Shown: positions 25,938 through 64,000 of the stretch, in pieces
Layout of the letters: each line of letters opens with the position of its first letter
How positions within the stretch are numbered: position 1 is the stretch's first letter
DNA from: Proteobacteria bacterium bin106
Lineage (GTDB): Bacteria > Bdellovibrionota_B > Oligoflexia > Oligoflexales > Bin106
Direction of reading: 5' to 3'
Length of the DNA stretch: 64,000 nucleotides
NCBI GenBank assembly: GCA_002238945.1
Contig: MPNI01000002.1
Span: forward strand, 1 to 64,000
Made by a program: the position numbers and the translations under genes
The notes under the pieces: generated by a model
Databases searched by the model: none
What the model was told of the DNA's origin: nothing
What the model saw: the letters and a program-made list of their open reading frames with translations, nothing else

Positions 25938-26003
25938 GTCACTTTCCTACTCACTGAACATTCTATGAAAACTTCATTCTAAAAGCATAAAGGGAAATAA
26001 ACC

Positions 26004-47298: not shown

Positions 47299-48426
47299 TT
47301 AATCACTGCTTTGCAGCAAACATCCGTGCTCTCTAGTAGTGTGGTGCATTGTTGCGGAGCAACTCTCATACTGACCAATAACCTGCTGAATAAACCTCTT
47401 TTCACCTACTGTTAACACATCTTTCATCCTGTCATCAACTGTCTCCAAAATATTAACAAATAAAGCAGGAATACCAAATGTACCGTAGCCACCATCAGGT
47501 AGCGAGTAGGATTTTTGGAGTATCTCTTCTGTACCTCTAGTTCTAGTAATAATATGAGTATCAGCATCAGCATCATTAAGTACTTGATTAATCTGATCTT
47601 CACTGCTAGAGCCTGAGACAGTAGCAGCAGCTAAAAGTGCACCCGTTGCCATAACACCGGTAGTCATAATAAGCATTGCAAAAAACACTTCAGGACCACC
47701 AAATATGCGACCTGCCGACTGCTCATTTATGAGCTTTTCTAACGTCTCGCTTGCACTATGCAACTTTGCCAACACTTTATATTCCTCATTTATTAGGTTT
47801 TTCCCAGCTTCTATTGTCTTATAAAGCATATCTAATGGAGTAATATAGTATCCCAAAAGATCTTTTTCTACGTCTCGCAGACTACCTGCAAGTCTGCTTT
47901 GAATCATTTTTAATATCTCGACCAAACTACTCGCAATCAAAAGAATATCTTCTTTATTATATTCACCTTTCTCCACAAGTTCTTTTACAACATCTTTATC
48001 AAATAACCTGAACCCAAATTCTGAATTATTGAAAGATTTTACTTGCTTCAGAACTCCTGGAACAACATTCGTATAATTCGTATATTGTGTTTCTTGTTTT
48101 AAAAAGAAAGAATGCAGAGCACTATAAAGCACTACCATACCTACAAAATTGATGCTGTCTTCTTTTTGCTCAGCTTTTTCGAGTGGAAATACACGAGTTG
48201 TCATGCCAAAGACGGCATATTTTTTATCCAGTTGCGACTGCAACTGATCTTGGCTGAGGCTGAGATGCGACAGACTTTTTTTATCTGCACTTTGTACACT
48301 TTCACTTTGTACACTTTCACTTTGTACACCTTGACTTTTTGCACCAGCATCGTCCTCAGAACAACTTACGACAGCTAAAAGCAGTAATAAAGAAACACCA
48401 AGGCTTATTATTTTTAATCGTATCAT
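47299..48426 (-). CDS. Lipoprotein of duplicated lipoprotein/peptide module (copy A)
   Basis: Lipobox AVVSC (about residue 22) after a clear signal peptide. A 15-bp repeat gives the linker QSESVQSESVQSADK. The folded part is paralogous to the gene at 50097: FGMTTRVFPLEKAEQKEDSI, FVGMVVLYSAL, GEYNKEDILLIASSLVEIL, KMIQSRLAGSL, then LIMTTGVMATGALLAAATVS (a hydrophobic segment) and DDRMKDVLTVGEKRFI. It is 375 residues against 324 in copy B; copy A has extra Cys near its end (SCSATMHH). Divergently placed 498 bases from a tiny secreted peptide gene, an arrangement also found in copy B. No known family recognised. Confidence 0.72.
   Translation of the reverse strand: MIRLKIISLGVSLLLLLAVVSCSEDDAGAKSQGVQSESVQSESVQSADKKSLSHLSLSQDQLQSQLDKKYAVFGMTTRVFPLEKAEQKEDSINFVGMVVLYSALHSFFLKQETQYTNYTNVVPGVLKQVKSFNNSEFGFRLFDKDVVKELVEKGEYNKEDILLIASSLVEILKMIQSRLAGSLRDVEKDLLGYYITPLDMLYKTIEAGKNLINEEYKVLAKLHSASETLEKLINEQSAGRIFGGPEVFFAMLIMTTGVMATGALLAAATVSGSSSEDQINQVLNDADADTHIITRTRGTEEILQKSYSLPDGGYGTFGIPALFVNILETVDDRMKDVLTVGEKRFIQQVIGQYESCSATMHHTTREHGCLLQSSD
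48291..48330. repeat. 15-bp tandem repeat in the copy A lipoprotein
   Basis: TTTGTACACTTTCAC repeated (about 2.7 copies), encoding the VQSES units after the lipidated Cys. Confidence 0.85.
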
Positions 48427-48924
48427 ATCAAAAGTCCTTCATTAAATTGTATCAACAGCCTACATAGCTATATCATTGGAGTACTCTATACCACAAAAAA
48501 ACAAACTCGTAAATACCTATCACATACCTGTTACTTGCTGCATACCTAGATTTACCTGAAACAGCGTTCATCATCTCATAAGTAAATGTTTTCTCTCCGC
48601 ACGTAATACAATTTTTTCATTCCGCTGCCATATTCTGGTATCTGAAATTTTGCAAAAAATCACATCACCCATCCCTAAGCCCCTAACTACATAAGCTACT
48701 CTCAGCTTTTTTTGTTCTTTTAAGGCTAGCAAACATGCCCATATTACTGCTAAGTGATTAATATCTTTATTTTTTCTTTGTAATATTGGTTTTCTATGAT
48801 ACATTTGTCGACATGCGTGCTATGATCCTGGTCTTGCTGACAAGATCGGTGGACTTCGCAAACACTACTAACGACACTACTAACGACACTACTAACGACA
48901 CTACTAACGAAAGGAGACTTTGTT
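48427..48924. other. Divergent promoter region of module A
   Basis: 498 bases between the lipoprotein and peptide starts. The part next to the lipoprotein (about 48430-48570) resembles 51075-51230 in module B (for example TTGCATACCTAGATnT), so the upstream region was duplicated too. A 77-codon minus frame (48571-48804) is unconvincing. The last 48 bases are the 12-bp repeat. Confidence 0.5.
48863..48910. repeat. 12-bp tandem repeat x4 abutting the peptide ribosome-binding site
   Basis: Four perfect CACTACTAACGA units ending immediately before AAGGAG of peptide gene A. Not found upstream of peptide gene B. Confidence 0.93.
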
Positions 48925-49089
48925 ATGAAAACCGTCTTGATGAAAACAATTTTTCTTCTGCTAACACTTTCGCTTATGAGTACCTATAGCTATGGGACTG
49001 TAGCTCCTGATCTAGAGGACGCCGTTTCTTTTGGCGGTGATACTTGTGAGTACTTCCCCCAACCTATTGGGGTTGCTTGTCTAGTCTAA
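48925..49089 (+). CDS. Small secreted two-Cys peptide, copy A (54 aa)
   Basis: Short gene with AAGGAG 8-9 bases before the ATG. Signal peptide MKTVLMKTIFLLLTLSLMST (about 23 residues, ending YSYG), a variable stretch, then GGDTCEYFPQPIGVACLV, holding two Cys separated by ten residues. Copy B (51517) aligns without gaps over all 54 residues with 39 identities by my count, concentrated in the signal and the C-terminal 18 residues. A hairpin terminator follows. The exported, probably disulfide-bonded peptide could be a signal, a bacteriocin-like effector or a ligand of the adjacent lipoprotein; none is proven. Confidence 0.75.
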   Translation: MKTVLMKTIFLLLTLSLMSTYSYGTVAPDLEDAVSFGGDTCEYFPQPIGVACLV

Positions 49090-49096
49090 CCTCTAA

Positions 49097-49151
49097 GCAA
49101 CTGACAGGAGCAGTAAATCCTTCACTAACCTGTCAGTTGCTTCTTGCTTTT
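49097..49151 (+). terminator. Terminator of peptide gene A
   Basis: Perfect 12-bp stem GCAACTGACAGG/CCTGTCAGTTGC (49097-49140) with a 20-base loop, followed by TTCTTGCTTTT. The same hairpin is kept after peptide gene B. Confidence 0.8.
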
Positions 49152-49489
49152 GGCCCCTACCTCCCTTTGCAAACCTGCTGTCACATAATATCTTCCATGC
49201 AATGATAAGCTTATAGCACATCTATATGCACCAAATTTTGGACTCAATTCTAAACCAAGATCAAAAGCTGTGTCTTGTTTTTGGGGATATTCACACAAGA
49301 ATTTCATTTTTGATGAGAAACGTTGAGAGGGTTTAGATGGTGGTTGACGCAAAGGTGAAGTAGTGGATTTTGTAGTCCCATTTTTGTAAAAATGTGGTCC
49401 CGATATTGAGATTTTTGATGTCCCAATTTAGGTAGGGGATTAACCTGTAAATGGGTGGTGGCATAAATTGAAAACAGACACCTTGAAGC

Positions 49490-49665
49490 AGCCTTAATAA
49501 AAGGATCTCATAAGTGGAAGCGCAAAGTGCCAACAAACAACTGTCTTCTTCTAGAGGTGTAAGAGGTATTTATCACATTCAAACTGTCAATTCTATACAC
49601 AGTCATTTCAAAGAATTTCTGGCCCCTGACAAAGATGTAGCTAAGTATGAGGTAATTATATAGCT
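49490..49665 (+). pseudogene. ISXO2/IS1595-type transposase remnant
   Basis: A readable fragment gives HKWKRKVPT and then RGVRGIYHIQTVNSIHSHFK. This matches the C-terminal part of IS1595-family transposases, where the family reads RGxYHIQNVNSYHSxLK. It breaks off at a TAG soon after DVAKYEVII. Frame changes and the missing N-terminus show that it is a relic. Confidence 0.65.
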
Positions 49666-50096
49666 CTCTTTGAGTGGTCTTAGAAGGCTGCCACAGAATG
49701 TGCAAAAACATTTAAAGCACGTATCATCTCCACATATTTAAACATAAGATCAAACCAGATGGCCCTTAGAGAAATTAAAAAGGGCTCTTTTTTCAATACT
49801 CGTATTGGTCACATTTATAATCGATATTCAATATGTATTGCTATTTTTACACCGCTTGAGTGGAAACATTTTATTACATACTAAACTATCATATAATAGC
49901 TTCTGGAATTCTCATAAATAACAAACTTTAAGTTATTTTTTAAAAAATTAACTTAAGCCAAAATCCGATCATTCCATATCACGACTTAATCACAACAGAG
50001 CCTTATTTCTATATATACTCTTATCTTGAAAGATACTTTATGCTATAACAGCAATATATTAAGCTGTTTTATTTGGCACTTTTTCATTCAATAATC

Positions 50097-51071
50097 TCAA
50101 ACATCTTGGCATTCTGTCACAGACTCTTCTAGCTCTTTACAATAATCCTTAAAGATTTCCTCATACTGATCAACAACCGTACTAACAAACGTCTTTTCGC
50201 CTGCTGTTAGCACATCTTTCATTCTGTCAGGCACTGACCCCAACATTCCCAAAAACATCATAGCTTTAGAAAATGCTACTTCTACCAATACCTTTTCTGG
50301 AGTTGTTGCATCAGGACCATCAAATACTTTAGAATCTGAGACCGAAACAGCAGCTACGAGTGCACCCGCTGCCATTAAGCTAGTATTCGCCATAAGTGTG
50401 GCAAAGAAAAACTCGCTAGGATCATTGGAGTTATCTTGTGGCTCATCTTCTGTGAACTTTGCACCTATCACATCTAACTGAACCTTACGTGTCACCGCTT
50501 TATATTTCTCCCCCTCTAGATCTATCTCCTCTCCAGCTTCTATTGCTTTATAAAACTCCTCTAATGAGGTAATGTTAGATGTCAAACGTTTACTTTCTGC
50601 ACTTGCCAGACTAGCTGAAAGTCTGTTTTGAATCATCTTTAATACCGCAATCAAACCATTAGCGAGCAAAAGAATATCTTCTTTATCGTACTTACCTTCC
50701 TTCAAAGGGACTCGTAAACCTGACTCATTAAAAAACTCGAGCAGAAAATCTGCATTAGAAGATTGTATTTGCTTCAGCACTTTTGGAATAAAGTTCTTAG
50801 ATCCTGCCTCTTCTAATAATTTAGAAACCATGCCACTATAAAGCAGCACCATACCTATAAAATAGATGCTGTCTTCTTTTTGCTCAGATTCTTCCAGTGG
50901 AAATTCATAAGTGGTCATACCAGAGAAGGCAAATGCTTTCTCTAGCTGCAACTGATCTTGACTCTTAGCACCTTCACTTCCAACACTGGTTTCTTCAGAA
51001 CAGCTTATCAAAGCAGCTAAAACCAGTAATAAACACATACCAATACCAAAACTTATCTTACATCGCTTCAT
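50097..51071 (-). CDS. Lipoprotein of duplicated lipoprotein/peptide module (copy B)
   Basis: Lipobox ALISC (about residue 24). Paralogue of the gene at 47299, with matching blocks FSGMTTYEFPLEESEQKEDS, FIGMVLLYSGM, GKYDKEDILLLANGLIAVL, KMIQNRLSASL, FYKAIEAGE, then LMANTSLMAAGALVAAVSVS and PDRMKDVLTAGEKTFVSTVV. It lacks the VQSES linker repeat and the C-terminal extension of copy A. C-terminal Cys residues (KDYCKEL and TECQDV) may pair. Divergent from peptide gene B, 445 bases away. Confidence 0.72.
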   Translation of the reverse strand: MKRCKISFGIGMCLLLVLAALISCSEETSVGSEGAKSQDQLQLEKAFAFSGMTTYEFPLEESEQKEDSIYFIGMVLLYSGMVSKLLEEAGSKNFIPKVLKQIQSSNADFLLEFFNESGLRVPLKEGKYDKEDILLLANGLIAVLKMIQNRLSASLASAESKRLTSNITSLEEFYKAIEAGEEIDLEGEKYKAVTRKVQLDVIGAKFTEDEPQDNSNDPSEFFFATLMANTSLMAAGALVAAVSVSDSKVFDGPDATTPEKVLVEVAFSKAMMFLGMLGSVPDRMKDVLTAGEKTFVSTVVDQYEEIFKDYCKELEESVTECQDV

Positions 51072-51516
51072 AACAAAAACGCCTCAAAAAATTTTATCAG
51101 CAACTTACTTAGCTGCACTATTGGAACACTCTCTAGCTAAAAAAATCTACAAACTCAAAAGCACCTACCGCATCCCTATTACTTATTGCATACCTAGATA
51201 TGCAAGCCTGAAACAACTTTGAATCAGATTCTAAAGAAGGGTAAATATCATCAAAATCATTCATGATCTTAGAGATACATTTCTTCTTCCCTCACATGTA
51301 CACACTTCCCTGTTCTAGCAGATATCGACTTCAACACCTAAAACATAAAGAAAGGTTGTACCTGAAAAAAGTAGCAGTTTTTATATTTACATTCAAAATA
51401 ACTATGTTATACACGTCACAAGATGTGTGTTTTGGTCTTGCTAAAGGTCTTACTAAAAAAGCCAACGAATTTCACAGAAAACCAAGAAACAACACCACTT
51501 AAAAGAAAAGCGTGCT
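51072..51516. other. Divergent promoter region of module B
   Basis: 445 bases equivalent to 48427-48924, with patches of similarity. A TTTTGGTCTTGCTAAAGG segment near 51431 resembles TCCTGGTCTTGCTGACAAG near 48826 upstream of peptide A, suggesting a shared upstream element. Confidence 0.45.
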
Positions 51517-51696
51517 ATGAAAACAATCCTGATGAAAACAATTATCCTTTTGCTAACACTTTCTCTTATGAGCACCTATAGTTATAGTGCTGTAGCTCAT
51601 AACGAAATAGAATCCAATTTTTTAGGTGGTGATCCTTGTGAGTACTTCCTCCAACCAATTGGTGTTGCTTGTCTAGTCTCACCTCTAAGCAACTGA
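51517..51696 (+). CDS. Small secreted two-Cys peptide, copy B (59 aa)
   Basis: Paralogue of the 48925 gene. Signal MKTILMKTIILLLTLSLMST ending YSYS; mature C-terminus GGDPCEYFLQPIGVACLV plus SPLSN, because the TAA that ends copy A reads TCA here. The middle (AVAHNEIESNFL) is almost unrelated to copy A, while the flanks are nearly identical. The stop codon lies inside the first arm of the terminator hairpin. The ribosome-binding site is weaker (AAAAGAAAAG). Confidence 0.72.
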   Translation: MKTILMKTIILLLTLSLMSTYSYSAVAHNEIESNFLGGDPCEYFLQPIGVACLVSPLSN

Positions 51697-51743
51697 CAGG
51701 AGCAGTAACTCCTTCACTAACCTGTCAGTTGCTTCTTGCTTTT
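51689..51743 (+). terminator. Terminator of peptide gene B
   Basis: The same 12-bp stem as at 49097 (GCAACTGACAGG/CCTGTCAGTTGC, 51689-51732), overlapping the peptide stop codon, then TTCTTGCTTTT. Confidence 0.8.
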
Positions 51744-51836
51744 AGCCTCTCCCCTTGCGAGCCTGCTGTTAGATAAAATCTTTAATGCAACAGTGAGCTA
51801 ATGGCACCTCGTATACCCGCCAGATTTTTAGTGTAC

Positions 51837-51899
51837 TGATGGCTCTTGGTATGCTGATGGCTCTTGGTATGCTGATGGCTCTTGGTATGCTGATGGCTC
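51837..51899. repeat. 18-bp tandem repeat x3.5
   Basis: TGATGGCTCTTGGTATGC three times plus a partial copy. Confidence 0.92.
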
Positions 51900-52009: not shown

Positions 52010-53004
52010 TCAATATGATATATTACTTACTTCGGGATGGGCCAGCTCTTTGGCGTCCTTAGCCCCTTGTTCCACCCGACTATCAAGAGGGTGGGGTTTT
52101 TGACCACTAACTTTCTTTGAGGAGTAGTGAGATTCTCCGTATTGAAACGGAGTTTGATAGCCAAGGGAAGAATGGAGTCTCTGGCGGTTGTACCACACTT
52201 CAATATACTTAAATAAGTGGGCTTGCATCTCCTCTTGACAGTCAATTTTATGCCTGTATATATGTTCTTTTTTGAGTGTGCTAAAGAAACTTTCCACATA
52301 AGCATTATCATAGCAATTACCTCGACGACTCATGCTTGGGAGGATCTGATGTGCATCTAAAAAGTCTTTGTATGCCTTGCTTGCATATTGACTTCCTCGA
52401 TCTGAATGAAAGATTATCTTGACATTGTTTATGGGGGTGGTGGGAGTTTTATGTAATGCATTGCTTGTAGCATTGAGCACTAAAGAAGTCTCTAAGTTCT
52501 TTGCTAGAGACCACCCTAAGACCTCACGAGTAAAGATATCTAACACCACAGCAAGGTAGATATGTTGGCCATTAGACAGCTTTAAATACGTGATATCACC
52601 GGCTAAAACCTCTCTTGGCGATTGAGGATAACTGTTTGGATTTTCTACCTCAAATCTCCTCTCAGCAACAGCAGAGTTATGATCTGAGTCAGTTGTAACA
52701 ATCCTCCTTCTTTTTTTCTTACGGTTCGCATTAACCCCATCTCTTCCATATATTTAGCCACAGTGTTCTTACAAACTGACTTCTCGGAAGTTCTAAGGGC
52801 ATGGAAGATCCTGGGAGATCCATAGGTACCATTTGATTGATCAAACAGGCGCTTAATCTCTGCCTTGATACTATCTTTACGGCTTGGTAGACCTTTGCTT
52901 TGATCGAGTTTCCACTTGTAGAAGCTTGAAGGTGAAACGTCGAAGTGTAGGCATAAAGCTTTAAATGAATGCTTCTCGTTATTGTTTTTTGTCATGTTAA
53001 TCAT
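52010..53004 (-). pseudogene. IS3 transposase OrfB, frameshifted
   Basis: DDE integrase-type OrfB in two frames. The N-terminal part (from 53004) has the HTH_21-like SIKAEIKRLFDQSNGTYGSP region. After VRKK the frame is lost at a run of seven A (T run at 52711-52717 on the plus strand). A -1 shift restores RRRIVTTDSDHNSAVAERRF and then the core: LDIFTREVLGWSL, IFHSDRGSQYASKAY (second Asp), RRGNCYDNAYVESFFSTLKK (Glu) and YNRQRLHSSLGYQTPFQY. It overlaps orfA by ATGA. Either it is inactivated by a homopolymer indel, or slippage at the A run still yields full protein. Confidence 0.8.
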
Positions 53005-53321
53005 TTCATACCTGCGAGGTGGCTTTGCGATAAAATCGCTGCAGTTTTTCTTAGCGTAGAAGCTACATTGTTGAGTATGCTTACTTCTTTCTTAAGGGCA
53101 CGATTTTCTTTAAGAAGCTCAGCATAGCTGCGAGTCTCTCCACTCGTAGGGGATTTGATGTCAAGGTATATACGTCTCCAGCTATATAAACAGGATGCAG
53201 AAACACCCAGCTTCTCTGCAGCAGTTTTGACTCCATGCTCCTCACTTAAGTTGACAGCATCACGCTTAAACTCTTCATTGTAAGAATCTCCTCTCTTCAT
53301 ATCGACCTCCATAATAAACAA
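53001..53321 (-). CDS. IS3 OrfA (helix-turn-helix)
   Basis: 106-residue OrfA: EFKRDAVNLSEEHGVKTAAE-type HTH, then SCLYSWRRIY and a leucine-zipper helix (YAELLKENRALKKEVSILNN). AGGTCGATATG precedes the coding start. Ends by overlapping OrfB at ATGA, so translation of OrfB would be coupled here rather than by the usual A/B frameshift. Confidence 0.88.
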   Translation of the reverse strand: MFIMEVDMKRGDSYNEEFKRDAVNLSEEHGVKTAAEKLGVSASCLYSWRRIYLDIKSPTSGETRSYAELLKENRALKKEVSILNNVASTLRKTAAILSQSHLAGMK

Positions 53322-53348: not shown

Positions 53349-54368
53349 TTAATGATTCTGATTCAAAGCTTCAATGAGTCTTGACACGAATCTTTTCACA
53401 TATCCTCCTACTACTTTACGTCTTTCATAGTTAACACTCCAACTATTCGTAGAAGAAATAAAACGAAGTGGTACTCCAGTCCTCATACCTACAAGCTTCG
53501 TTATATCTGCTTCTGAAAATTTACTAAAATTATTATAGTAGCCAGCTACAAGGCTCAATATTTTAGTTTCTTCCACACTAAACATTACAGAATGTTGGTG
53601 TTTGTCTATACCAGATTTATATAAATAAAACATTAAGTTTAAATCAGAATATACAGGATAATGACTTTTCAATATAGCAGCTAAAGGACCATCGGCTCTC
53701 AGAGAGGAACCAAAAAGGCTAAGAGTTCCTAATCTATGACCATCTCTTTGAGTTTTAGAAAATTCTATAACTCTTCGGAGGTCAATATCAGGCACGGAAG
53801 AATTAGAAGAAATAGGCACACTTCTTGAACCATTTGGACCTTTAAACCAAACAAATATTTTTGCATAATCATAATGGTTTTGACATTCTGAGCGATCATC
53901 CATACCAAAGAAACGAAAATGACCATGACTATCATTGGCGTATTGAGAAAACACGACAGAAGAGCCTCTATTATTATTATCATACTTAATACAGGTCTTT
54001 TTTTTGCTTTTTACTGAGCTATTATCAACAACAGACCCTACTAAAGAAGAGCTTACAGAGTACTTCGGAGGTGATGGCACATCATCACCTTTATTATTAG
54101 TATCATTAGATATATCAAACAAAAAATCATCTATGCCTTTAGCTAACTCTTCATTTTCCTGTGAAACAGTCAAAGGTGCACTGTCCTGTGAAATAGCAGA
54201 AGGGGCAAGAGATGAACTTTCCCTAGTTTGTGTTGACACATCAGTGCAACCAAACGAAAATGCAGGCAGAAACATAAACAAAGCCAAAGAAAAATTGATA
54301 TGCCTTGATATGCCTTGATATGCCTTGATATTAACCACCTTTTCATTAAATAATGATCTTATATTCAT
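53349..54368 (-). CDS. Lipoprotein with a 10-bp repeat in its signal region
   Basis: 339 codons. Hydrophobic signal INFSLALFMFLPAFSFGC with the lipidation Cys at about residue 41. A Ser/Asn/Asp-rich stretch runs to about 120, then a folded region (DSHGHFRFFGMDDRSECQNH; AKIFVWFKGPNGSRSVPI; SHYPVYSDLNLMFYLYKSG). The n-region is encoded by a 10-bp tandem repeat (AYQGISRHIN), whose copy number sets the reading frame. ATG 54368 has AGGA at 6-base spacing. Family unknown. Directly upstream of the IS3 element on the same strand. Confidence 0.65.
   Translation of the reverse strand: MNIRSLFNEKVVNIKAYQGISRHINFSLALFMFLPAFSFGCTDVSTQTRESSSLAPSAISQDSAPLTVSQENEELAKGIDDFLFDISNDTNNKGDDVPSPPKYSVSSSLVGSVVDNSSVKSKKKTCIKYDNNNRGSSVVFSQYANDSHGHFRFFGMDDRSECQNHYDYAKIFVWFKGPNGSRSVPISSNSSVPDIDLRRVIEFSKTQRDGHRLGTLSLFGSSLRADGPLAAILKSHYPVYSDLNLMFYLYKSGIDKHQHSVMFSVEETKILSLVAGYYNNFSKFSEADITKLVGMRTGVPLRFISSTNSWSVNYERRKVVGGYVKRFVSRLIEALNQNH
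54295..54334. repeat. 10-bp tandem repeat x3.5 inside a coding start
   Basis: TTGATATGCC units, perfect, between the start codon and the hydrophobic core of the lipoprotein signal. Ten is not a multiple of three. Confidence 0.92.
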
Positions 54369-56450
54369 TTGAAATCCTGTATTGAAATCCCATATAGTAC
54401 TAAACTGATAACGTGTTAAAAAATTTATTTTATAATGTTGTAAGCTGTTTTTTATTCAAATTCATAAAGACCTCTTTTTTCTCCTTCTACAGACAAAAAT
54501 GGATAATGCAAGCATAATCAACGCTTAATTACAACAAAACATTAATGTCTAATTGTTAATGTATTTGTTATCTTTTTAATGAACCCCTACCACTTAGTAA
54601 CACCAGGTACTTTCTCTGGCATTACTATCACACTATTAAGCCCTAAACCCCCCGATAATTATAATACTATGATCGGTATAGCACATTAATTCTTTAGGGA
54701 TACTCACTTTACTTGAAAGCAAAGCCCTTTTTAAGATGGCTTTAGTCACCAAGATGGTGGGGAAGGAAAATATAAACTGACACTGAGCTACTCTTCATGC
54801 AGAATTTCACAAAGCCTCTAGCGTAGTACATGCCTCATATCATTGGCAATAGATGTGATAACATGGATGCCGGCAAGTTCATAGGTAATTGTCAGTTTTA
54901 AGTATGTACAAGTACATAGCTGAATCATACATAAAAAACATGTATTCTAAGCCTATCTTTACCATAAGGTTCTATATTATCTGATAGGCTACGAGTATAG
55001 AGTCTGTGATAAATTTTTACATTTTTATCCTTCAAAACATAGAAAAAACAAATTATTAAAATCTACTTTTATGAAGATATTATTTTGGTAACTAGATATT
55101 TTGCGGGTAGGCACAGCTTCTAGGAGAAGAATATTTATTAAAATTTTTAAGTCAAAACAATGTTGATAAACTTGCAGAAGCCCTAAAAATATACCTTGCT
55201 CAAATTCCTTACTTTATTCAGTCTCCATAAAAAGCGTAAACACACCTATGCTCTTATTTTACATAGTCAGCTATGGAATTTACATGGAGATCTACAAGCC
55301 GAAAAGTTTCATCCCGAGGACGCTGTAATATAATGTTTTCCTGTGAGGATCAAAATTTTTTTAAATTAAAGGCCGCATCTGGTGAAAACAAGCAAAAAGA
55401 GACACCAGATGCTGCTATGAATCAAATCCACTCTCAAGAATATGCGGATCCTTATCAAGGTAAGGGTAAATCTATTCATTTGATGGCTTTGGTCTTTGAT
55501 AAAACGAAGCGTAGTCTTCTTACGATGCGTCATGAGACGCTCTAAAATTTGTGATAATTTTGTATAAAAATAACCTCACTACCATATATGCATCTGGTTG
55601 CACTTTACACTTCTGTCTTGCCTGAGTCATCAAAAATTTTTAAGGCGGTACCAAATTTTACCTAAATAGGATTGCAAAATCTACCACTTCTCCTTAATAC
55701 CATCAGTTTTTGGGCAAGTCCAATGATTCAAAAGCCTTGTAACTTTCATGATATTTTTCAGTCTATCTGTTAAACGCATAATGTTTATTTTTAAAAAGAC
55801 ACTCCTTTTTCTAAAATAAATTCCTTAATGACGTTAGCCATAATTTTTTTGCGAAACCTTAAGCATCTATGTTACATCTTATTGGATAAATTTATTCTAG
55901 TGATAATTATTATAAAATTAGCTGACAAGTTCAAAGACCTTAAGCAAAAATGCTCTTTTATCACTCCCTATTTATAAAACTTATATCCGTGTTTTCATTT
56001 TGATAAAAGGTTTTTGTCTAATCAAACAAAAAAGACACTGCATTTCTATTTTCTTAACTGAAAAACTCATAGTAACCTCTTTGCAAACGTCATCTTTAAG
56101 CTCTTCAGGTGTTTGACCACACAAACCTCCGCGTAAAAAAAAGACCGACGTGGTGGATGGGATATCCCAACAACGTAACTTTGCTGAGATAGATCATCTT
56201 ATAAAGACAACGATAGCAAAGTGATACAACTAAGCAGGCCTATAAAGAGAGAGGCTCTTACTAAAGAAGTGATTTCAGAAAGCTCTTCACATGCCGACAA
56301 GGTGCTGGGTTAGTGTCTGTAGCTATAACCAACAGATACTCTACGTTGACAAGATTTTATTAAGATACAAGAAAGAACATCAACCAGCATACCTAGGCAA
56401 GACCTTTGCAGAGAAACATTGTGACAAAGAAGCCTTATGAGATACACATA
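54369..56450. other. Two-kilobase region of decayed DNA
   Basis: Holds the PD-(D/E)XK pseudogene fragment at 55120-55545. Other parts (54720-54760, 56140-56400) give broken frames that may be old transposase or gene remnants, but I cannot assign them. No intact gene seen. Confidence 0.5.
55120..55545 (+). pseudogene. Remnant of AAA-ATPase-like/PD-(D/E)XK protein
   Basis: Broken C-terminal end of the AAA-ATPase_like + PDDEXK_9 family. FLSQNNVDKLAEALKIYLAQ + IPYFIQ corresponds to the family's ...IPY segment. After frame changes, NQIHSQEYADPYQGKGKSIH + LMALVFDKTKR matches the terminal QIxxKxYAxxYxxxGKxIxxIGVxFxxxxR block. Several stops lie between, and the ATPase part is missing. These proteins are common in host-associated bacteria. 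Confidence 0.68.
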
Positions 56451-57212
56451 ATGAAGTGGAATGTTTTCATATCAACAGCTCTATTAACCCTTCTGGTCTC
56501 TTGTTTGAAACCACCGAGTAGTACTACGCCTGATGACAACAACACAACTGATGACAACAACACAACTGATGACAACAACCAAAGTACAACACCAAACACT
56601 GTGACCACACATGAGAACATCACAGCCGATTTTCAATATGTGATCCATAATAATGGAGCCACTCCCACCACCAGTAATGCGACAGCAACCGGTAAGTTTA
56701 AGAGCAAGCTAAAAGAGAAAGGCCATCAAACATTACTTGCTGCCACCAATGTCACCACAAAGTGGGTGATAGAGCTCCAAAACAAAAATAGCAAGCCTTT
56801 CCTGTCTAAAATTGTCGCATCAAATGTTGAAGGAGAAGGGCTAAAATCCACAAAATCAGGCACACATGGCCACACCTATACCATGGAAAATCTCTTTATT
56901 GATGCTGGAAATACCAATATTACCTTTAAAATGGTTCCTACAGAAGCTTGCCAAATAAAATATTCTAGCAACACCAATCTATGCACAACCATTGATTCAG
57001 CTCCAAGCGATGTTACAGCAGAAATAACCGTACCCATAGAGGTCATAGATACAGGAGTAAAAAGTACTACTGATTCCACAACGTGTTCCTTTATACAAGC
57101 TGGAGGCAATATTCTAAGCATTCTTACCGGACAAAGTGCAATGGGCCAACTCTTAGGAAAGACCGCTAGAGACATCATAGCTGCTAGCAATAGTTGTCAG
57201 ATATCACCATAG
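56451..57212 (+). CDS. Lipoprotein with DDNNTT repeat linker
   Basis: Signal MKWNVFISTALLTLLVSC from ATG 56451 (lipidation Cys18); the frame opens 15 codons earlier without support. After Cys comes a spacer of DDNNTT units encoded by an 18-bp repeat. The mature domain reads TADFQYVIHNNGATPTTSNA, KWVIELQNKNSKPFLSKIVA, ITFKMVPTEACQIKYSS and ends in Cys-containing TTCSFIQAGGN and SNSCQISP. It has the look of a beta-sandwich exported protein. Unknown family. Confidence 0.65.
   Translation: MKWNVFISTALLTLLVSCLKPPSSTTPDDNNTTDDNNTTDDNNQSTTPNTVTTHENITADFQYVIHNNGATPTTSNATATGKFKSKLKEKGHQTLLAATNVTTKWVIELQNKNSKPFLSKIVASNVEGEGLKSTKSGTHGHTYTMENLFIDAGNTNITFKMVPTEACQIKYSSNTNLCTTIDSAPSDVTAEITVPIEVIDTGVKSTTDSTTCSFIQAGGNILSILTGQSAMGQLLGKTARDIIAASNSCQISP
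56531..56580. repeat. 18-bp tandem repeat in the lipoprotein spacer
   Basis: TGATGACAACAACACAAC twice plus most of a third copy, in frame. Confidence 0.9.
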
Positions 57213-57537
57213 CAAAAACCAAGACTTTGCAAAAACACATGCCTCTCATGGCTTATGATAAATGCCTTAATACATTTTGTGCTAAAATCGAAGATAATAT
57301 GATGTATACGATCTTGACCTATTTTTTTGAATGTTTTTTAGTAACTGCTTTTTTAGATTTTCACTCAAAACCACACACTGACACTTGAGGTCATATAAAC
57401 AAGAAAAGAAGGTCAACAAACACCTAACAGATAGGCATCAATGTATACCCCCGCCATGTCAACATACAACCACATATGAGTAGAATAAATGTGAGTAACA
57501 TAATATAGTGATCAACGCTTTAAGGCCAACAACCCTC
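57213..57537. other. Intergenic stretch, nothing identified
   Basis: About 325 bases; no terminator or RNA gene seen. Confidence 0.35.
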
Positions 57538-58509
57538 ATGAATACCAAAGATACATCGGTGTATGGCACCTTCGGGATCACTAAACACTCTTTTCTTACC
57601 AACTACCTGTGGTATGCAGTATATGCGGTAATAATATGTCTTGGATGGGTATGGCTATCCACACAAGCTCTGTGCCAAGAGCAACAAGACACCGCTGATC
57701 TTGATGTGGAAATCAAAAACCGTCTTTATAAAACCCGCAGCGCTTTTGATATAGGTGTGCATGGTGGGGCTATTCTTAATCACCCCTATATCCAACCCTG
57801 GACCATTCATGGCACTGCTAATTACTATATTACACGAAGTATCGGAGTAGGACTCGATTATACCCACATCTTAAACAAAGACAAACCAGAACGTATCTGT
57901 GTAGAAAATTTCTATAACACTTTTAACCACGAAAATCTCCCCCTAAGCTCTGTGTGTGCCGGTGATGGCAACCCAGAAACAGCTAAAAAAGAGCTAGCAA
58001 AGGTGCAAAATTCAGCACCTCCTATCCCAAATATGGGACCAGCTTACCCACCCATTCGCGAACTCAACATGATCATACAAGCTGCCTTTATCTGGTCCCC
58101 TATATATGGGAAACTGTTGTTTTTTATGTCACAGGTTGTCCACTTTAGCACATTTGTGTCCCTTGCCGGTGGTGTTACCATTAACACACATTATCCAGGA
58201 AAGTCCAAATCTTCAACAGGCAAGTCGCTGCGAGGATCTGCTCCAGCACAAGGTATCTCAGCTACAATTAGTGAGCTCACCACGCCAGGAGTAAGTGCAG
58301 ATGAAGTGAATGAATATGGTAAAGCAGGCAGGCCAGATAGCCAAAAGTATTACACACCTACCGTTACTATAAGTATTGGTCAAAAGTTTTATGTTACAAA
58401 AAACATCAACCTCCACTTAGAAGGCCGCAGCATGTTCCTGATTGGTACTGGCGGCAGCAAGTATGAGGTCTATTTTGCTTTGTTAGGTGGACTAGGCCTG
58501 AGAATCTAA
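57538..58509 (+). CDS. Putative outer-membrane beta-barrel protein
   Basis: Signal-anchor-like segment LWYAVYAVIICLGWVWLSTQ ends near ALC/QEQQ. Then come strand-like repeats: FDIGVHGGAILNHPY, NYYITRSIGVGLDYTHIL, FVSLAGGVTINTHYPG, VTISIGQKFYVTKNINLHLE and the C-terminal EVYFALLGGLGLRI. A Cys pair (RICVEN and SSVCAGD) sits in a probable extracellular loop. The start is uncertain: ATG 57538 was chosen, but the frame also opens with GTG 57508 and neither has a good ribosome-binding site. Resembles OmpA/Omp_b-brl-type barrels in style. Confidence 0.62.
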   Translation: MNTKDTSVYGTFGITKHSFLTNYLWYAVYAVIICLGWVWLSTQALCQEQQDTADLDVEIKNRLYKTRSAFDIGVHGGAILNHPYIQPWTIHGTANYYITRSIGVGLDYTHILNKDKPERICVENFYNTFNHENLPLSSVCAGDGNPETAKKELAKVQNSAPPIPNMGPAYPPIRELNMIIQAAFIWSPIYGKLLFFMSQVVHFSTFVSLAGGVTINTHYPGKSKSSTGKSLRGSAPAQGISATISELTTPGVSADEVNEYGKAGRPDSQKYYTPTVTISIGQKFYVTKNINLHLEGRSMFLIGTGGSKYEVYFALLGGLGLRI

Positions 58510-58529
58510 AACCTCTTTGCCTGATTATA

Positions 58530-58916
58530 TTAGTACTTTTTCCACCCAGAGATACAGTTAGTTAAAACTCGATCTTCTTCTGCTACAGCGGCGTAATAGC
58601 TTTTCATCTTTTTTAAGATCTTTTGTTTACATGCCGCAGAAGCTTTACTCAGTGGCGTTTGAGCATAACTGTGTGAAAGTGCATCCTTCCATTCAACTCC
58701 ATCGTATTGTGTTACCGCAGTTATACCAGTACATACCTCATCCCAAGTGATTTCGCACTCAAACGAATCATCATCACTCTTACCTTCTTCGCCAGAGCCT
58801 TGACCTGTGTTTGCTAAGACGTAAGAACCACCATTTTGATCGTCCGATTGCATTTTACAACCAAAACACAACACCGCCGCAACTAACAATAATCCAATCA
58901 TCCTTAAATGTTTCAT
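58530..58916 (-). CDS. Small lipoprotein
   Basis: 128 residues. Signal MKHLRMIGLLLVAAVLCFGC with GGGAGG just upstream of the ATG. The mature domain is acidic with Cys residues (FECEITWDEVCTGI, AACKQKI, TNCISGW) likely in two disulfides. Helical C-terminal half (KASAACKQKILKKMKSYYAA). Family unknown. Convergent with the barrel gene, 20 bases between the stops. Confidence 0.72.
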   Translation of the reverse strand: MKHLRMIGLLLVAAVLCFGCKMQSDDQNGGSYVLANTGQGSGEEGKSDDDSFECEITWDEVCTGITAVTQYDGVEWKDALSHSYAQTPLSKASAACKQKILKKMKSYYAAVAEEDRVLTNCISGWKKY

Positions 58917-59216
58917 AAGTTACCTCCCACAAATGAAGCAAACTCACACCATCTATCATTCTATCATAAACATATAAAGCGTGAATCTTAAAAAAATCCC
59001 ACTAAGCACTGTCAAGCAGACACCTAGCCGTACTATTAGCCATACTATGCTGCTACTGTCATCGGCACTTTAGTGAAACAACATGAATCACAATGCACAG
59101 ACACTACAACAAAAAGTCATAAGAAGAGTAGGGGAAGAAAACACACCCATAGCTTGTTGTTAGCAAAGAACAACAAGCTACCAACTAGTAGTGTGCATGA
59201 AAAACTCGATAACAGA
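58917..59216. other. Intergenic stretch with terminator
   Basis: 300 bases; the only clear element is the hairpin at 59150-59180 after the large lipoprotein gene. Confidence 0.5.
59135..59180 (-). terminator. Probable terminator of the large lipoprotein gene
   Basis: Perfect 12-bp stem TAGCTTGTTGTT/AACAACAAGCTA with a 7-base loop, 37 bases past the stop on the minus strand. Downstream minus-strand sequence is GGGTGTGTTTTCTT, a weak T tract. Confidence 0.6.
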
Positions 59217-62200
59217 TCAATAGTTATAATAACCACCTATAGAAGGTAAGACCTGAGAGAAGCGGTTATAGATGAATCCCTTAGGAAATTTGATAAATTT
59301 TTGTGAAGAAGGAAAAAGATTTTTATTTACACTCAACACAGATTTATCGTCTATAAACCATAGTACATAGTCATCGGTCATTTCCTTAAGTCCTGCCAGA
59401 CCAGGAAATTCCGGTATGGTATTCACCTCATTGCGACCCTCCGGATCATCCACATCCAGATCTGTTAGGCTATAGATAAACTTCAAATAATCACTTTGCC
59501 CTCTAAGAGGGTATAACCAACTACGGAACCTCTCTAAGCTGGAATCATAAATGGTTGTATCCTCAAATCGAGGAGCAGGGTAACGATAGTGTTCTACAAC
59601 TGCTACACTAGTTTGCGGATCGGATTCTTTGGCTTTAAGAAGCTCAGGAGGCTGTTTGTCAGTGCATATAAGATACCCATCTCCCATACCTCTAAACAAA
59701 TTCTCGAGCCATTCACGAGCTACCTGTGTGTCCATTATCTTCTTGAACTCACTTTCATGAAAGCCCCCAAAAAAGTTCTTATAAAAGTTCTCATAATTGA
59801 GACGTAACAGAAAACAGTGCTTAGGACGATCAAACTTCAAGTACACCTGCAAGGTGGTCCAATTGGAATAATGTGTCGCCCCACCACCAAGCTCTTCTTG
59901 ATCAGATTCCTCATATTCACCACTTTTTGAAAAAGATGTCTTGAGTCCCACCCCAAAGCTCACAACAGCCTTAGACAAGCTTTCTAAGAATTCCACTGCA
60001 TTAAAACTGGCAGACATGGTCTGATACAACGCCAAGCCCCGAGTAATGGCTTTTGAACGAACATCTTTAAAAGCAAGAATATCCGTACCGGCATCTTTTG
60101 CACGAGCCTCTACCTTAGATCCTTTAAGAAGATGATGAACCACAACGGTCTGACTGAGCCACTCACGAAGCGAATGATGCATTTCACCAGAACGGATCTG
60201 ACGACACTTCTCAAAATAAGGCTCAAAATAGTGCTTAACTAAACCATACCACTCCGGACTTCCGACTTGAAAGAAATGACTCCTTTCATAAAAAAGATAG
60301 TTTTCCCTAAGCATAGTCCGTAAATGAGGTATGTCTTTAAACCACAAGCCACATATTTGATGGACCAACTCCTCCTGACGACTACCTTCACGATTCCAAG
60401 CAATCTCTCTAAGCTCTTCTGCTGTTAAAGACAGACCCACTTCTGAAAAAACCTTTTTATTCAATTGAGCAACCGACATGCTGCGATATTTACTGACATC
60501 ATCCAAACACTCGCCACCTTCCACCAAACAATGCCGCTTAAGAGGCACAGAACCCTTCTGAGTTTTCTGCTTCGGAAAATGCAACGCCGAATAAGGCTTT
60601 TCTTCTAAAGACACATATTTCAAGTTAGAACTCTCCAAATACTCCGAATCCAAAGTATTAAAATGAGCATAATAACGCTCAAGAATATTCCATTTTTTCA
60701 CAAGAAGCTGCACTTCCTCCCAGGAATGATACTCCGAATCACCAAGCAAAGGCTTGCCATCATAGCTCATATCTTCTTCACTTAAAGATACCCGACCACT
60801 ACTAGCATCTTTTTGATCGTTGCCCGAAACACTCTCGCCATCTCGATGAGCCAGATCCACGCCTTCCGTGGATCGCGAAGACTTATTAAACCGCTTGATG
60901 GTAACCCGATTGGTCATAGGAGCAACATCCACGTTTTTAGCAAGCTTTACAGGAGGTGTGAGATGGATGGGAACTGCCAACTCTTTGGTTTCATAAGGAG
61001 TCAAGACAAACGTTAGTTGAGTGGTTAACCAACTCATCCGCGCATCCGGTAACGTAATAGGCAGTACTGTTGGAGGAATATTACCGTCTTTCACATAGAC
61101 ATCCTGACTCGTCATACTCGCAGGACAAAATGTATAGTTGTAAGCTTCGCCAGCCTTTTGCTCTACAGTACGTTGCTCATATGGTGGGAAGCGAAGATAC
61201 TTACGAGGTTTGGAGCTATCACCCTTGTTTTTCATAATATGCTGCACTGTAATCTGCCGTAAATCATCACCAATGGAAAGATGATACAACGATCGATTAA
61301 TCAAATGACGATCTTTTTGTTTAGCACACGTCAAATAGGCATCTAAGCGATACAAACCATCTGGAGCATCCACCACCATGGATTTCTGACCGAACTCCTT
61401 CATGATCTTGGAACGCATTTTCACAGAAGCACTAAATTGATAATCATAATGAATACGCAAAGATAGATCCTTGCGTGGCAAGTAACGGAAATCCTTAGGC
61501 GGCTTTAAGTCATACTTGTGGATGAATACTGTGGGCTTTTTAGCCTTAAGTGCACGATACTTAGCTAACACGTCTGATGAAAGTTTATCTGGGTTTTCTG
61601 AAAGCACTTTACCACTACTCCATACCGTACCATCACCCCAAGGGCGGAAGAATAAAGGTACTTCCACAGACAATGTTTTTTCTGTATTCGTTATAACAAA
61701 ACGCAGATCCTGCAACTTGCTCTGCATCGTGTAAATGTCATACAAGAAAGGGAAATCAAAATGGATCACACCATCACTATTCACCCTCACCTGCCGCGAC
61801 TCATCATGTCCCTGTAAACTCACCAGCAAGTCGGTATTTTTAATAGGCTTTCTTGAAGAGCGATGAATCAGCTTCACAGAAAACTGCAAATCATACGTGA
61901 CTGTTGTTGTCGTACGTGAGCTTTCCTTAAGGAAGGCGATCTTAGGGTTTTGGGCAAAGAATGTGGCATGAGCAAAACCCTCTTTTTGCAAAGGAGGCCC
62001 CTCACCAGCACCCGCCACAGCAGGCACTTCTGCAAGGTCTGCTTCTTGGAGAGTTTCCCTATCAAGATCTTGATTGACAAAATACAAAGTCTTAACCGGT
62101 TTCAAGCCATCCCCTGCAAACTCTGAATGGCTTTTAAGAGATATCTTCAATAAAAGATTATCTCGCTCAGAAGTAATAGCCGAAGAGAGCTTCTCAATGA

Positions 62201-63200
62201 CATGAAGCTTACCAGCCTTAATACTCTGTTTCTTAAAAGTATGTACTTTGAGTGTCTTGGCGTGAGAAAGATTTTGTTTTGTCAAACTATAGTCTTTATT
62301 CAAGCTCATCAACTCCACAACCACATCAAGTGTCCCATTTTCAGGAATAAGTGAATGAGATACCCCCGCGTCATCAAATACTTCAAGTTGTGGGTCAATA
62401 TCAAGATGCCAATGAGTTTCATGATCCCTAGCAGCCGTGTTATGAGCAAAGACTCTCCTTTCAACACGTGAAATCTTCAACAAAGCTGGCTTATTTACAC
62501 CATCAGCCCCATCCGATGGATGAGTTTTCTGATCTGTAGCTGCATTGTTCTGCTCTGTAGCAACGCTCTTATTGTTAGGATTATGAGGGTCATCGTCACC
62601 CACCACTTCCACAAACTCAGCAGAGGTTGTGGGACGTAAACCCGCCCAAGGATTCAACTTGTAAGCAATCACCAAACGACCAGGGTATTTGCCTTCTCCC
62701 ACAATCTCAAATGTTTTGCTCAAAGCATGAGATTGCACATAAGGATTAAATGACTCGGTCTGCTTCCACTTCAAACAGCCCTCTTCATCACTCACATATG
62801 ACTCACCACCTACCTTGAAAAGACTCAAAGGCAAACTGCGCATACTGATACGATCTTTCAGACACGTCTCAAATTCATAGGTTTTCTGAGTAGCTAACAT
62901 CTCACCTTCTGGACGATAAGACTCAATCATACGGTAACTAACTGGAGAACTCACAAAATCATGAAAGCCCATCTGTGCCTTATCTTTATCTTTAAAGCAG
63001 GCACCAACGGATAGCAATACACCACATGTTAGGGCAACCATAAGGTATCTATGGGTTTTTTGTTTCGTAGCAGCTTTCATAGTAGCCTTATGTGCCACAG
63101 CCTTATGTGCCACAGCCTTATGTGCCACAGCAGCCTTACCTCTGAATACATAACGCCTCAGAGAGGATGCGAGATGATTGAGAATAAGTGTGTGTAACAT
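59217..63200 (-). CDS. Very large lipoprotein (about 1290-1327 aa)
   Basis: Unrecognised exported protein. Lipobox LLSVGAC after YLMVALTCGV. The long frame begins at ATG 63200 (GGAG nine bases upstream), which puts about 68 residues before the Cys, including three AVAHK units from a 15-bp repeat. The in-frame ATG at 63080 (TAAGG at 5 bases) gives a normal lipoprotein signal and is the likelier start. The mature protein has strand-rich N-terminal parts (LVIAYKLNPWAGL; VTYDLQFSVKLIHRSSRKPI), a polar linker near residue 800, and a helical C-terminal third (WLSQTVVVHHLLKGSKVEAR; FKDIPHLRTMLRENYLFYER). It lies 89 bases downstream of the barrel gene, so probably one operon. Confidence 0.75.
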   Translation of the reverse strand: MLHTLILNHLASSLRRYVFRGKAAVAHKAVAHKAVAHKATMKAATKQKTHRYLMVALTCGVLLSVGACFKDKDKAQMGFHDFVSSPVSYRMIESYRPEGEMLATQKTYEFETCLKDRISMRSLPLSLFKVGGESYVSDEEGCLKWKQTESFNPYVQSHALSKTFEIVGEGKYPGRLVIAYKLNPWAGLRPTTSAEFVEVVGDDDPHNPNNKSVATEQNNAATDQKTHPSDGADGVNKPALLKISRVERRVFAHNTAARDHETHWHLDIDPQLEVFDDAGVSHSLIPENGTLDVVVELMSLNKDYSLTKQNLSHAKTLKVHTFKKQSIKAGKLHVIEKLSSAITSERDNLLLKISLKSHSEFAGDGLKPVKTLYFVNQDLDRETLQEADLAEVPAVAGAGEGPPLQKEGFAHATFFAQNPKIAFLKESSRTTTTVTYDLQFSVKLIHRSSRKPIKNTDLLVSLQGHDESRQVRVNSDGVIHFDFPFLYDIYTMQSKLQDLRFVITNTEKTLSVEVPLFFRPWGDGTVWSSGKVLSENPDKLSSDVLAKYRALKAKKPTVFIHKYDLKPPKDFRYLPRKDLSLRIHYDYQFSASVKMRSKIMKEFGQKSMVVDAPDGLYRLDAYLTCAKQKDRHLINRSLYHLSIGDDLRQITVQHIMKNKGDSSKPRKYLRFPPYEQRTVEQKAGEAYNYTFCPASMTSQDVYVKDGNIPPTVLPITLPDARMSWLTTQLTFVLTPYETKELAVPIHLTPPVKLAKNVDVAPMTNRVTIKRFNKSSRSTEGVDLAHRDGESVSGNDQKDASSGRVSLSEEDMSYDGKPLLGDSEYHSWEEVQLLVKKWNILERYYAHFNTLDSEYLESSNLKYVSLEEKPYSALHFPKQKTQKGSVPLKRHCLVEGGECLDDVSKYRSMSVAQLNKKVFSEVGLSLTAEELREIAWNREGSRQEELVHQICGLWFKDIPHLRTMLRENYLFYERSHFFQVGSPEWYGLVKHYFEPYFEKCRQIRSGEMHHSLREWLSQTVVVHHLLKGSKVEARAKDAGTDILAFKDVRSKAITRGLALYQTMSASFNAVEFLESLSKAVVSFGVGLKTSFSKSGEYEESDQEELGGGATHYSNWTTLQVYLKFDRPKHCFLLRLNYENFYKNFFGGFHESEFKKIMDTQVAREWLENLFRGMGDGYLICTDKQPPELLKAKESDPQTSVAVVEHYRYPAPRFEDTTIYDSSLERFRSWLYPLRGQSDYLKFIYSLTDLDVDDPEGRNEVNTIPEFPGLAGLKEMTDDYVLWFIDDKSVLSVNKNLFPSSQKFIKFPKGFIYNRFSQVLPSIGGYYNY
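63085..63129. repeat. 15-bp tandem repeat x3
   Basis: GCCTTATGTGCCACA three times, just upstream of the likely start of the large lipoprotein and in frame with the longer version. Confidence 0.92.
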
Positions 63201-63289
63201 ATGTCATATCTCCAAGTATATCTAAATCGTCATTACGGGAATGAAATATCATTCATTATAGTTATAGTTATCGCTCATATCGCTCGTTA

Positions 63290-64000
63290 TCACCACAGCT
63301 TCTGAGTTAACCTCAATTTCACCAGGCTGGTATCACGCTTATACATATTTCTATGACGCGGTGTATGGACATAAAAACCCGCATCCACTTTGGTATCTTC
63401 TTGGCCAAAACTGATGTTCACACCGTATCCTTCCACTCCGGTATAGCCTAGATGATGCTTGCCAAATTCTGCCAAATACACATCTTCACCCACCGAGAAA
63501 AACACCATTCCTAAACCAGCATATGCCTCTCGTTGAGACAAGAAGAAATAACGCTGGTACGAAAGGTCTCCCCATAGCCCATAAGCATACTCTTTTGGGG
63601 CCTGGGTATTGCCTAATATCTCCACTGAAGCATCCACACCATGCTCTGCAGACAGCCTCTTACCAAAGCTAGCACGTGCCCCCAAAGTAGACATGGAATA
63701 AGCTAATGCGTTAACATACTTGCCCTTAATCACACTATTGCCCTTCATGGCATAACGCTCAGCAAGCTCAGATGGAACACCACCTGTGCCAAACCAACGT
63801 AACGACACCGAATTCAGCAAAAAATATCTATCAGGATCAAAGGATCGTCCCGCTTGAAGACCAGCAACATAAGGAACACTTTTAGATACCACTAAAGCAT
63901 CTTTTTTCTTATAAGGTATGGAACTCACAAAGCCCTCTACCTCATACGCATCATAAGAGTAAGTCACCTTCATCGTTGGCAAAGACCTACTGTAAGAAGC
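63290..64000 (-). CDS. Outer-membrane beta-barrel protein, partial (C-terminal part)
   Basis: The frame stays open through the right edge of the window, so the N-terminus is missing. The visible 236 residues show alternating strands (VTYSYDAYEVEGFVSSIPY; RASFGKRLSAEHGVDASVEI; AYAGLGMVFFSVGEDVYLAE; VNISFGQEDTKVDAGFYVHT) and end SLVKLRLTQKLW with a terminal aromatic, the usual barrel signature. It probably forms an operon with the large lipoprotein downstream; a barrel/lipoprotein pair suggests an envelope complex, but no family is recognised. Confidence 0.72.
   Translation of the reverse strand, partial: ASYSRSLPTMKVTYSYDAYEVEGFVSSIPYKKKDALVVSKSVPYVAGLQAGRSFDPDRYFLLNSVSLRWFGTGGVPSELAERYAMKGNSVIKGKYVNALAYSMSTLGARASFGKRLSAEHGVDASVEILGNTQAPKEYAYGLWGDLSYQRYFFLSQREAYAGLGMVFFSVGEDVYLAEFGKHHLGYTGVEGYGVNISFGQEDTKVDAGFYVHTPRHRNMYKRDTSLVKLRLTQKLW

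What the first reader, a model, noticed from the sequence alone, without database searches (positions are those of the whole stretch)
47299..51743. Duplicated module: lipoprotein divergent from a tiny secreted two-Cys peptide
Two units with the same plan: a 324-375-aa lipoprotein on the minus strand, a 445-498-bp divergent region, and a 54/59-aa peptide on the plus strand with a conserved terminator hairpin. The peptides align without gaps over 54 residues with 39 identities. The signal and the GGD-x-CEYF-x-QPIGVACLV end are almost fixed; the middle is nearly unrelated. Fixed ends with a changing core are typical of exported effectors, pheromones or toxin/immunity-type pairs. The lipoprotein may be receptor or immunity partner. 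No known family comes to mind, and the peptides are short enough to be missed by standard calling.
Basis: partly seen in the sequence, partly recalled or inferred. Interest (0 to 1): 0.82.

Follow-up and report, generated by a model that had tools for sequence, protein, structure and literature searches.

The report
Duplicated secreted-peptide and lipoprotein gene pair
A little-known bacterium carries two side-by-side copies of an orphan gene pair, a fast-changing membrane-anchored protein facing a tiny secreted peptide with fixed ends and a scrambled middle; the pair is real, has no known relatives, and looks like a matched peptide-and-partner system whose job is still unknown.

Summary
The anatomy is real at the stated coordinates: two lipoprotein genes (375 and 324 aa, minus strand), each divergent from a 54- or 59-aa secreted peptide (39/54 identical, no gaps) ending at a near-identical 14-bp hairpin. 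Codon analysis supports the peptides as genes: their ends are under strong purifying selection (omega 0.09), while 11 of 13 middle codons changed the amino acid. The lipoproteins diverged similarly at synonymous sites but with omega about 0.8-1.2 and intact frames; a sites test favours positive selection, though it weakens in the best-aligned blocks. The hairpin region differs at 2 of 63 positions where about 21 would be expected. No relative of either protein was found in 57 other genomes of the same class, GTDB contigs or viral contigs (the peptide also not in phages or plasmids); the lipoprotein model is all-helical, low-confidence and unassigned. A weak match to the Bdellovibrio hit protein Bd0108 fails its family cut-off. 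Best explanation (about 0.38): a cognate pair, in which an exported, acidic, single-disulfide peptide is recognised by the outer-membrane lipoprotein and the variable segment sets specificity. Partnership is inferred from arrangement and co-duplication, not shown. Independent envelope proteins are the main rival.

The parts
47299..48426 (-). lipoprotein 1, 375 aa; signal peptide with lipobox VVSC, lipidated Cys22, Ser at +2; acidic (net -13); hydrophobic stretch about 247-271; all-helical low-confidence model
48427..48590 (-). 5' leader/promoter region of lipoprotein 1, partly conserved with copy 2
48862..48910 (.). 12-bp tandem repeat (ACACTACTAACG x4.1) just ahead of the ribosome-binding site AGGAG of peptide 1; absent from copy 2
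48925..49089 (+). secreted peptide 1, 54 aa; Sec-type signal 1-24 (by eye), variable segment 24-36, fixed tail GGDxCEYFxQPIGVACLV 37-54
49095..49142 (+). 14-bp perfect hairpin (terminator-like), nearly identical in both copies, loop included
50097..51071 (-). lipoprotein 2, 324 aa; lipobox LISC, lipidated Cys24, Ser at +2; acidic (net -21)
51072..51235 (-). 5' leader/promoter region of lipoprotein 2
51517..51696 (+). secreted peptide 2, 59 aa; same plan with five more C-terminal residues (SPLSN)
51687..51734 (+). 14-bp hairpin of copy 2; its 5' arm overlaps the last codons and stop of peptide 2

Best explanation
A lineage-specific cognate pair, duplicated once and diversifying. Shown or directly read from sequence: a small protein with a Sec-type signal and a lipoprotein are divergently encoded; both were duplicated as one unit and all four genes are intact. 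Predicted: the peptide is exported and cut near residue 24, leaving about 30-35 acidic residues with one disulfide (C41-C52, 10 residues between) in a fixed tail and a variable segment in front of it; the lipoprotein sits in the outer membrane (Ser at +2). Inferred: the lipoprotein binds its own peptide, the fixed tail being the common scaffold and the variable segment together with the fast-changing lipoprotein surface setting which peptide fits which partner, so that the two copies no longer cross-react. The most likely output is signalling or regulation at the cell envelope rather than killing.
For: Both genes lie in each duplicated unit and stay intact: 321 nucleotide differences in 939 aligned bases would give about 10.7 in-frame stops if unconstrained, none is present, and all internal lipoprotein indels are multiples of three. 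Synonymous divergence is similar for lipoprotein (dS 0.53) and peptide ends (0.47), so both genes appear to date to one duplication. Peptide ends omega 0.09, 2dlnL 16.3 against omega=1; nonsynonymous change concentrates in the middle, 11/13 against 4/41 codons, p=9e-7 with segments chosen after seeing the data. Lipoprotein omega 0.79-1.19; M2a over M1a 2dlnL 19.6 (22.1 away from gaps) against a maximum of 9.0 in 60 null simulations.
Against: No second genome shows the pair together, so co-occurrence cannot be tested. The positive-selection signal falls to 2dlnL 4.0, below the 95% null value of 6.8, when only locally well-aligned blocks are kept, so misalignment may feed it. The peptide middle alone does not exceed omega=1 significantly (2dlnL 1.5). 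Binding, secretion, cleavage site and disulfide are untested; the lipoprotein model has low confidence (pLDDT 55).
Confidence: 0.38

Rival explanations
1. Two unrelated envelope products that happen to be divergent neighbours: the lipoprotein is a fast-evolving surface or periplasmic protein and the peptide an independent small secreted protein; the duplication simply carried both.
For: No co-occurrence outside this genome. Orphan lipoproteins without Pfam matches crowd the right part of this window, and another tandem pair of orphan lipoproteins lies at 24852-27026, so tandem lipoprotein copies are not special here.
Against: Both genes kept intact in both copies at dS about 0.5, when either could have been lost; the other tandem pair is much older (synonymous sites saturated).
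Confidence: 0.3
2. Secreted bacteriocin or contact toxin with a lipoprotein immunity partner, as in lantibiotic LanI lipoproteins.
For: Small secreted disulfide peptide beside a lipoprotein, diversification after duplication, orphan status.
Against: Mature peptides are acidic and lack Lys/Arg; no modification enzyme or exporter gene was recognised beside the pairs; the lipoproteins match no immunity or defence family.
Confidence: 0.12
3. The conserved object is an RNA: a small RNA or dual-function mRNA whose 3' hairpin is the working part, or a type I toxin-antitoxin peptide.
For: The hairpin region differs at 2 of 63 positions against 34% divergence at fourfold sites (p about 2e-9); even the loop is fixed, more than a plain terminator needs.
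Against: Clear codon-level constraint in the peptide frame; no Rfam match above threshold; gene conversion over the hairpin is not excluded with only two copies.
Confidence: 0.1
4. A distant form of the Bdellovibrio hit locus (Bd0108/Bd0109), a small secreted disulfide protein that binds a neighbouring secreted protein and controls pili and the growth switch.
For: NCBIfam hit_Bd0108 is the best-ranked NCBIfam match of peptide 2, 13.8 bits, E 0.062; Bd0108 is secreted, holds one disulfide and binds its neighbour Bd0109 (PMC3818213, PMC4267844).
Against: Far below the 40-bit cut-off, and the match (1-43) is largely the signal peptide; the family search finds nothing in this genome at E<=0.1 while weak chance-level matches appear in unrelated control genomes. 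bd0108 and bd0109 are co-transcribed, here the genes diverge; Cys spacing differs (CxxC against C-x10-C).
Confidence: 0.04

Closest known systems
Bdellovibrio hit locus, Bd0108/Bd0109 (NCBIfam NF053838)
   Same: small Sec-exported protein with one disulfide encoded next to a larger exported protein that binds it (PMC3818213, PMC4267844)
   Different: no sequence membership (13.8 bits against cut-off 40); co-transcribed rather than divergent; CxxC disulfide; Bd0109 is a YD-repeat protein, here an all-helical lipoprotein is predicted
Lantibiotic with LanI immunity lipoprotein (nisin/NisI); own knowledge plus PMC4828448 title and abstract
   Same: secreted peptide with a dedicated lipoprotein from the same locus
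   Different: no modification or transport genes recognised nearby, acidic peptide with a Sec-type signal, lipoproteins match no LanI family; Gram-positive system
Enterococcal pheromone with surface lipoprotein PrgZ/TraC (own knowledge; papers listed, not read)
   Same: secreted peptide recognised by an anchored lipoprotein, an analogy only
   Different: 7-8-residue linear peptides and OppA-type lipoproteins; here a disulfide peptide and a lipoprotein without a peptide-binding-protein match
Lasso peptide achromonodin-1 (PDB 8svb)
   Same: short similarity GG.t.EYFL.PI to the fixed tail (E 1.4)
   Different: not significant; a Sec-type signal is present and no lasso maturation gene was recognised nearby

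Membership tests
hit_Bd0108 (NF053838) | score above the curated 40-bit cut-off | tested here: not met
   13.8 bits for peptide 2, no match for peptide 1; no match in this genome at E<=0.1
hit_Bd0108 (NF053838) | co-transcribed neighbour Bd0109 | tested here: not met
   the neighbouring lipoprotein gene is on the opposite strand and matches no known family above cut-off
lantibiotic or other modified bacteriocin cluster with LanI | modification enzyme and ABC exporter beside the precursor gene | tested here: not met
   neighbours 44-64 kb are an acyltransferase, a GNAT-domain protein, an alpha/beta hydrolase, transposase pieces and orphan lipoproteins or secreted proteins
lantibiotic or other modified bacteriocin cluster with LanI | antimicrobial activity blocked by the lipoprotein | not testable with these tools
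   needs expression and killing assays
lasso peptide | maturation genes (leader-binding/peptidase and cyclase) next to the precursor | tested here: not met
   none among the neighbours
known anti-phage defence system | match to a PADLOC-DB model | tested here: not met
   no match up to E 1 for any of the four proteins
bacterial lipoprotein (general class) | signal peptide with lipobox and Cys | tested here: met
   VVSC and LISC after a hydrophobic stretch in both copies
DUF1844 (PF08899) | score above the 27-bit gathering score | tested here: not met
   18.0 and 17.5 bits over about 45 residues in the two copies

The most novel reading that the evidence does not exclude
A new kind of self/non-self or private signalling system in a poorly studied bacterial class: a Sec-exported disulfide peptide with an exchangeable specificity segment, read by a divergently encoded, co-diversifying outer-membrane lipoprotein, new pairs arising by tandem duplication, with a conserved 3' hairpin adding RNA-level control.
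Probability: 0.12. Interest if true: 0.78.

Novelty: new variant of a known kind. Interest (0 to 1): 0.46.

Why it matters
If the pair is a matched peptide and receptor or immunity protein, the two copies in one genome form a ready natural experiment on how a new specificity arises after duplication: one peptide keeps its frame parts and swaps its core while its partner changes in step. Both families lack relatives in what was searched, so they would also extend the set of small secreted proteins that family-based annotation misses. If the partnership is wrong, it remains a modest case of orphan envelope genes under unusual selection.

Tried and rejected
Bd0108/hit membership: weak signal-peptide-driven match, fails the cut-off and the genome search. 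Lasso peptide: E 1.4 match only. Alpha-pore-forming toxins (SmhB, AhlB): top of the Foldseek list for model 1 but E>=0.1 and TM about 0.15, and not the top of the list for model 2, where only scattered AhlB/XaxB chains appear at E>=0.8 among unrelated helical proteins; both models have low confidence. Hence no fold assigned. Viral-contig matches to the CEYFxQPIG pattern: one unrelated 135-aa phage-type protein in three contigs. DUF1844: sub-threshold. Third copy in this genome: none found, though the genome is 82% complete. Synteny with the only other genome of the genus: the two neighbouring genes tested have no match there, so no empty site could be compared. Background scan of 464 kb of this genome: among 31 loosely defined small ORFs with a hydrophobic start, the two peptides are the only ones that by eye combine a signal-like start with a polar mature part holding two Cys. 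The first call to the genome search used an uninformative pattern.
Full report
What is there. In 47299-51743 two units share one plan: a lipoprotein gene on the minus strand, a divergent spacer of 498 or 445 bp, and a small gene on the plus strand that ends at a hairpin. The lipoproteins are 39% identical (E=1e-62). The peptides are 39/54 identical without gaps. Homology of the units runs by BLASTN from inside the lipoprotein C-terminus to about 90-100 bp past the hairpin, broken by the divergent spacer. The last 20 or so residues of the two lipoproteins do not match and may be a junction of the duplication.

Are the peptides genes? Yes, as far as two copies can tell. The peptide frame is the only one of six without stops in both copies and has the fewest amino-acid changes. 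In residues 1-23 and 37-54, 13 codons differ and 9 of the differences are synonymous; redistributing the same substitutions gives a mean of 9.1 changed residues against 4 seen, p=0.0016. Maximum-likelihood omega is 0.09 there (2dlnL 16.3 against omega=1) and 0.35 over the whole peptide (2dlnL 5.9). Between them, 11 of 13 codons (24-36) change the amino acid; omega is 4.8 but not significantly above 1. The division into segments was made after seeing the data. Copy 1 has a strong ribosome-binding site (AGGAG, 8 bases ahead of the first ATG), copy 2 a weak one (by eye). Proline at 28 makes a cut after VA27 unlikely in copy 1, so I place the signal-peptidase cut after residue 24 in both; this is an estimate by rule, not a prediction program. 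The mature peptides would be 30 and 35 residues, net charge -5 and -4, without Lys or Arg, with Cys41 and Cys52 able to form one disulfide.

The lipoproteins. Both have a lipobox (VVSC, LISC) and Ser at +2, which by the E. coli rule means outer membrane (own knowledge). They are acidic and hold one hydrophobic stretch near residue 250 (copy 1) or 225 (copy 2). Models from a two-sequence alignment are all-helical with mean pLDDT 55 and 56 and match nothing in the PDB (best E 0.1 and 0.23). Pfam, NCBIfam, PHROGs and PADLOC give nothing above a cut-off. Their evolution is unusual: dS 0.53 and dN 0.44; omega 0.79 over all aligned codons, 1.19 away from gaps, neither different from 1. Yet the frames are maintained: 321 differences would create about 10.7 stops if unconstrained (minimum 3 in 1000 trials), none exists, and all internal indels are multiples of three. 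A two-class model without positive selection is beaten by one with it (2dlnL 19.6; 22.1 away from gaps; null maximum 9.0 in 60 simulations), but in blocks of good local identity the gain is only 4.0, below the 95% null value of 6.8. That last filter removes variable sites by construction, but misaligned columns could also make the signal, so I call positive selection likely, not proven. The other tandem lipoprotein pair in the window (24852-27026) is much older: its synonymous sites are saturated.

The hairpin. Over 63 bp after the peptide frame the copies differ at 2 positions, where fourfold sites of the lipoprotein differ at 34% (17 of 50; p about 2e-9). Even the 20-nt loop is kept but for one base. 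A plain terminator does not need this. Either the RNA element has its own function, or gene conversion has homogenised it; two copies cannot decide. The fact that divergence returns right after the T-run speaks mildly for function. No Rfam family fits.

Where else is it? Nowhere found. The lipoprotein profile finds only these two in 58 genomes (this one and 57 others), which is all that the collection holds for the class and also all that it returned for the phylum. The peptide profile finds nothing convincing beyond the two (the best foreign match covers only the signal region of a 294-aa open frame). The pattern CEYFxQP occurs only in this genome. Scans of GTDB contigs and viral contigs found nothing, nor did phage and plasmid searches with the peptide, a plasmid search with lipoprotein 1 or a phage search with lipoprotein 2. 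The only other genome of the genus lacks both, and the two flanking genes tested have no match there either.

How it may work. The most economical account of a divergent, co-duplicated, co-retained pair with one slow frame and two fast surfaces is a cognate pair: the fixed tail is a scaffold, the variable segment and the fast-changing lipoprotein set specificity. The acidic charge makes a membrane-lytic bacteriocin less likely and leaves a ligand or regulator as the better guess. Every step from export onward is inferred. The main rival, two unrelated envelope genes carried by one duplication, is only a little less likely, because orphan lipoproteins are common around here and there is no second genome to test co-occurrence.

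Compared with what is known. Bd0108/Bd0109 of Bdellovibrio is the nearest analogue in working principle, a small exported disulfide protein that binds its neighbour, but family membership fails. Lantibiotic LanI lipoproteins and enterococcal pheromone receptors are analogies from knowledge only; their defining neighbours or families are absent here. I therefore rate the module a new variant of a known kind (secreted peptide with anchored partner), with orphan components and an unproven partnership.

Noticed in passing
window 52010-53321 (-): IS3-type transposase next to module 2: orfA 53001-53321 and an orfB that is split into two open pieces (52645-53004, 52010-52549), so probably inactive.
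   Followed up: partly
window 49514-49663 (+): A 49-aa open piece between the modules that by eye resembles the C-terminal part of an IS1595-type transposase; Pfam gives no support.
   Followed up: partly
window 48862-48910, 48288-48338, 51836-51899: Three tandem repeats around the modules: 12-bp units ahead of peptide 1, in-frame 15-bp units in lipoprotein 1 (SESVQ), 18-bp units behind module 2. Possibly length-variable sites.
   Followed up: partly
window 49065-49071 and 49095-49101; same in copy 2: GUUGCUU in codons 50-52 is complementary to AAGCAAC in the 5' arm of the hairpin and could form a competing 7-bp stem; chance is not excluded.
   Followed up: no
window 24852-27026 (+): Another tandem pair of orphan lipoproteins (361 and 340 aa, about 34% identical), much older and under purifying selection.
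   Followed up: partly
window 53349-63982: Run of orphan lipoproteins and secreted proteins without Pfam matches, including a 1327-aa lipoprotein at 59217-63200.
   Followed up: partly
window 10194-11090 (+): 298-aa protein with tandem KRRVGRPKKTESAAPTG (AT-hook-like) repeats ahead of an HU-like C-terminal part, judged by eye.
   Followed up: no
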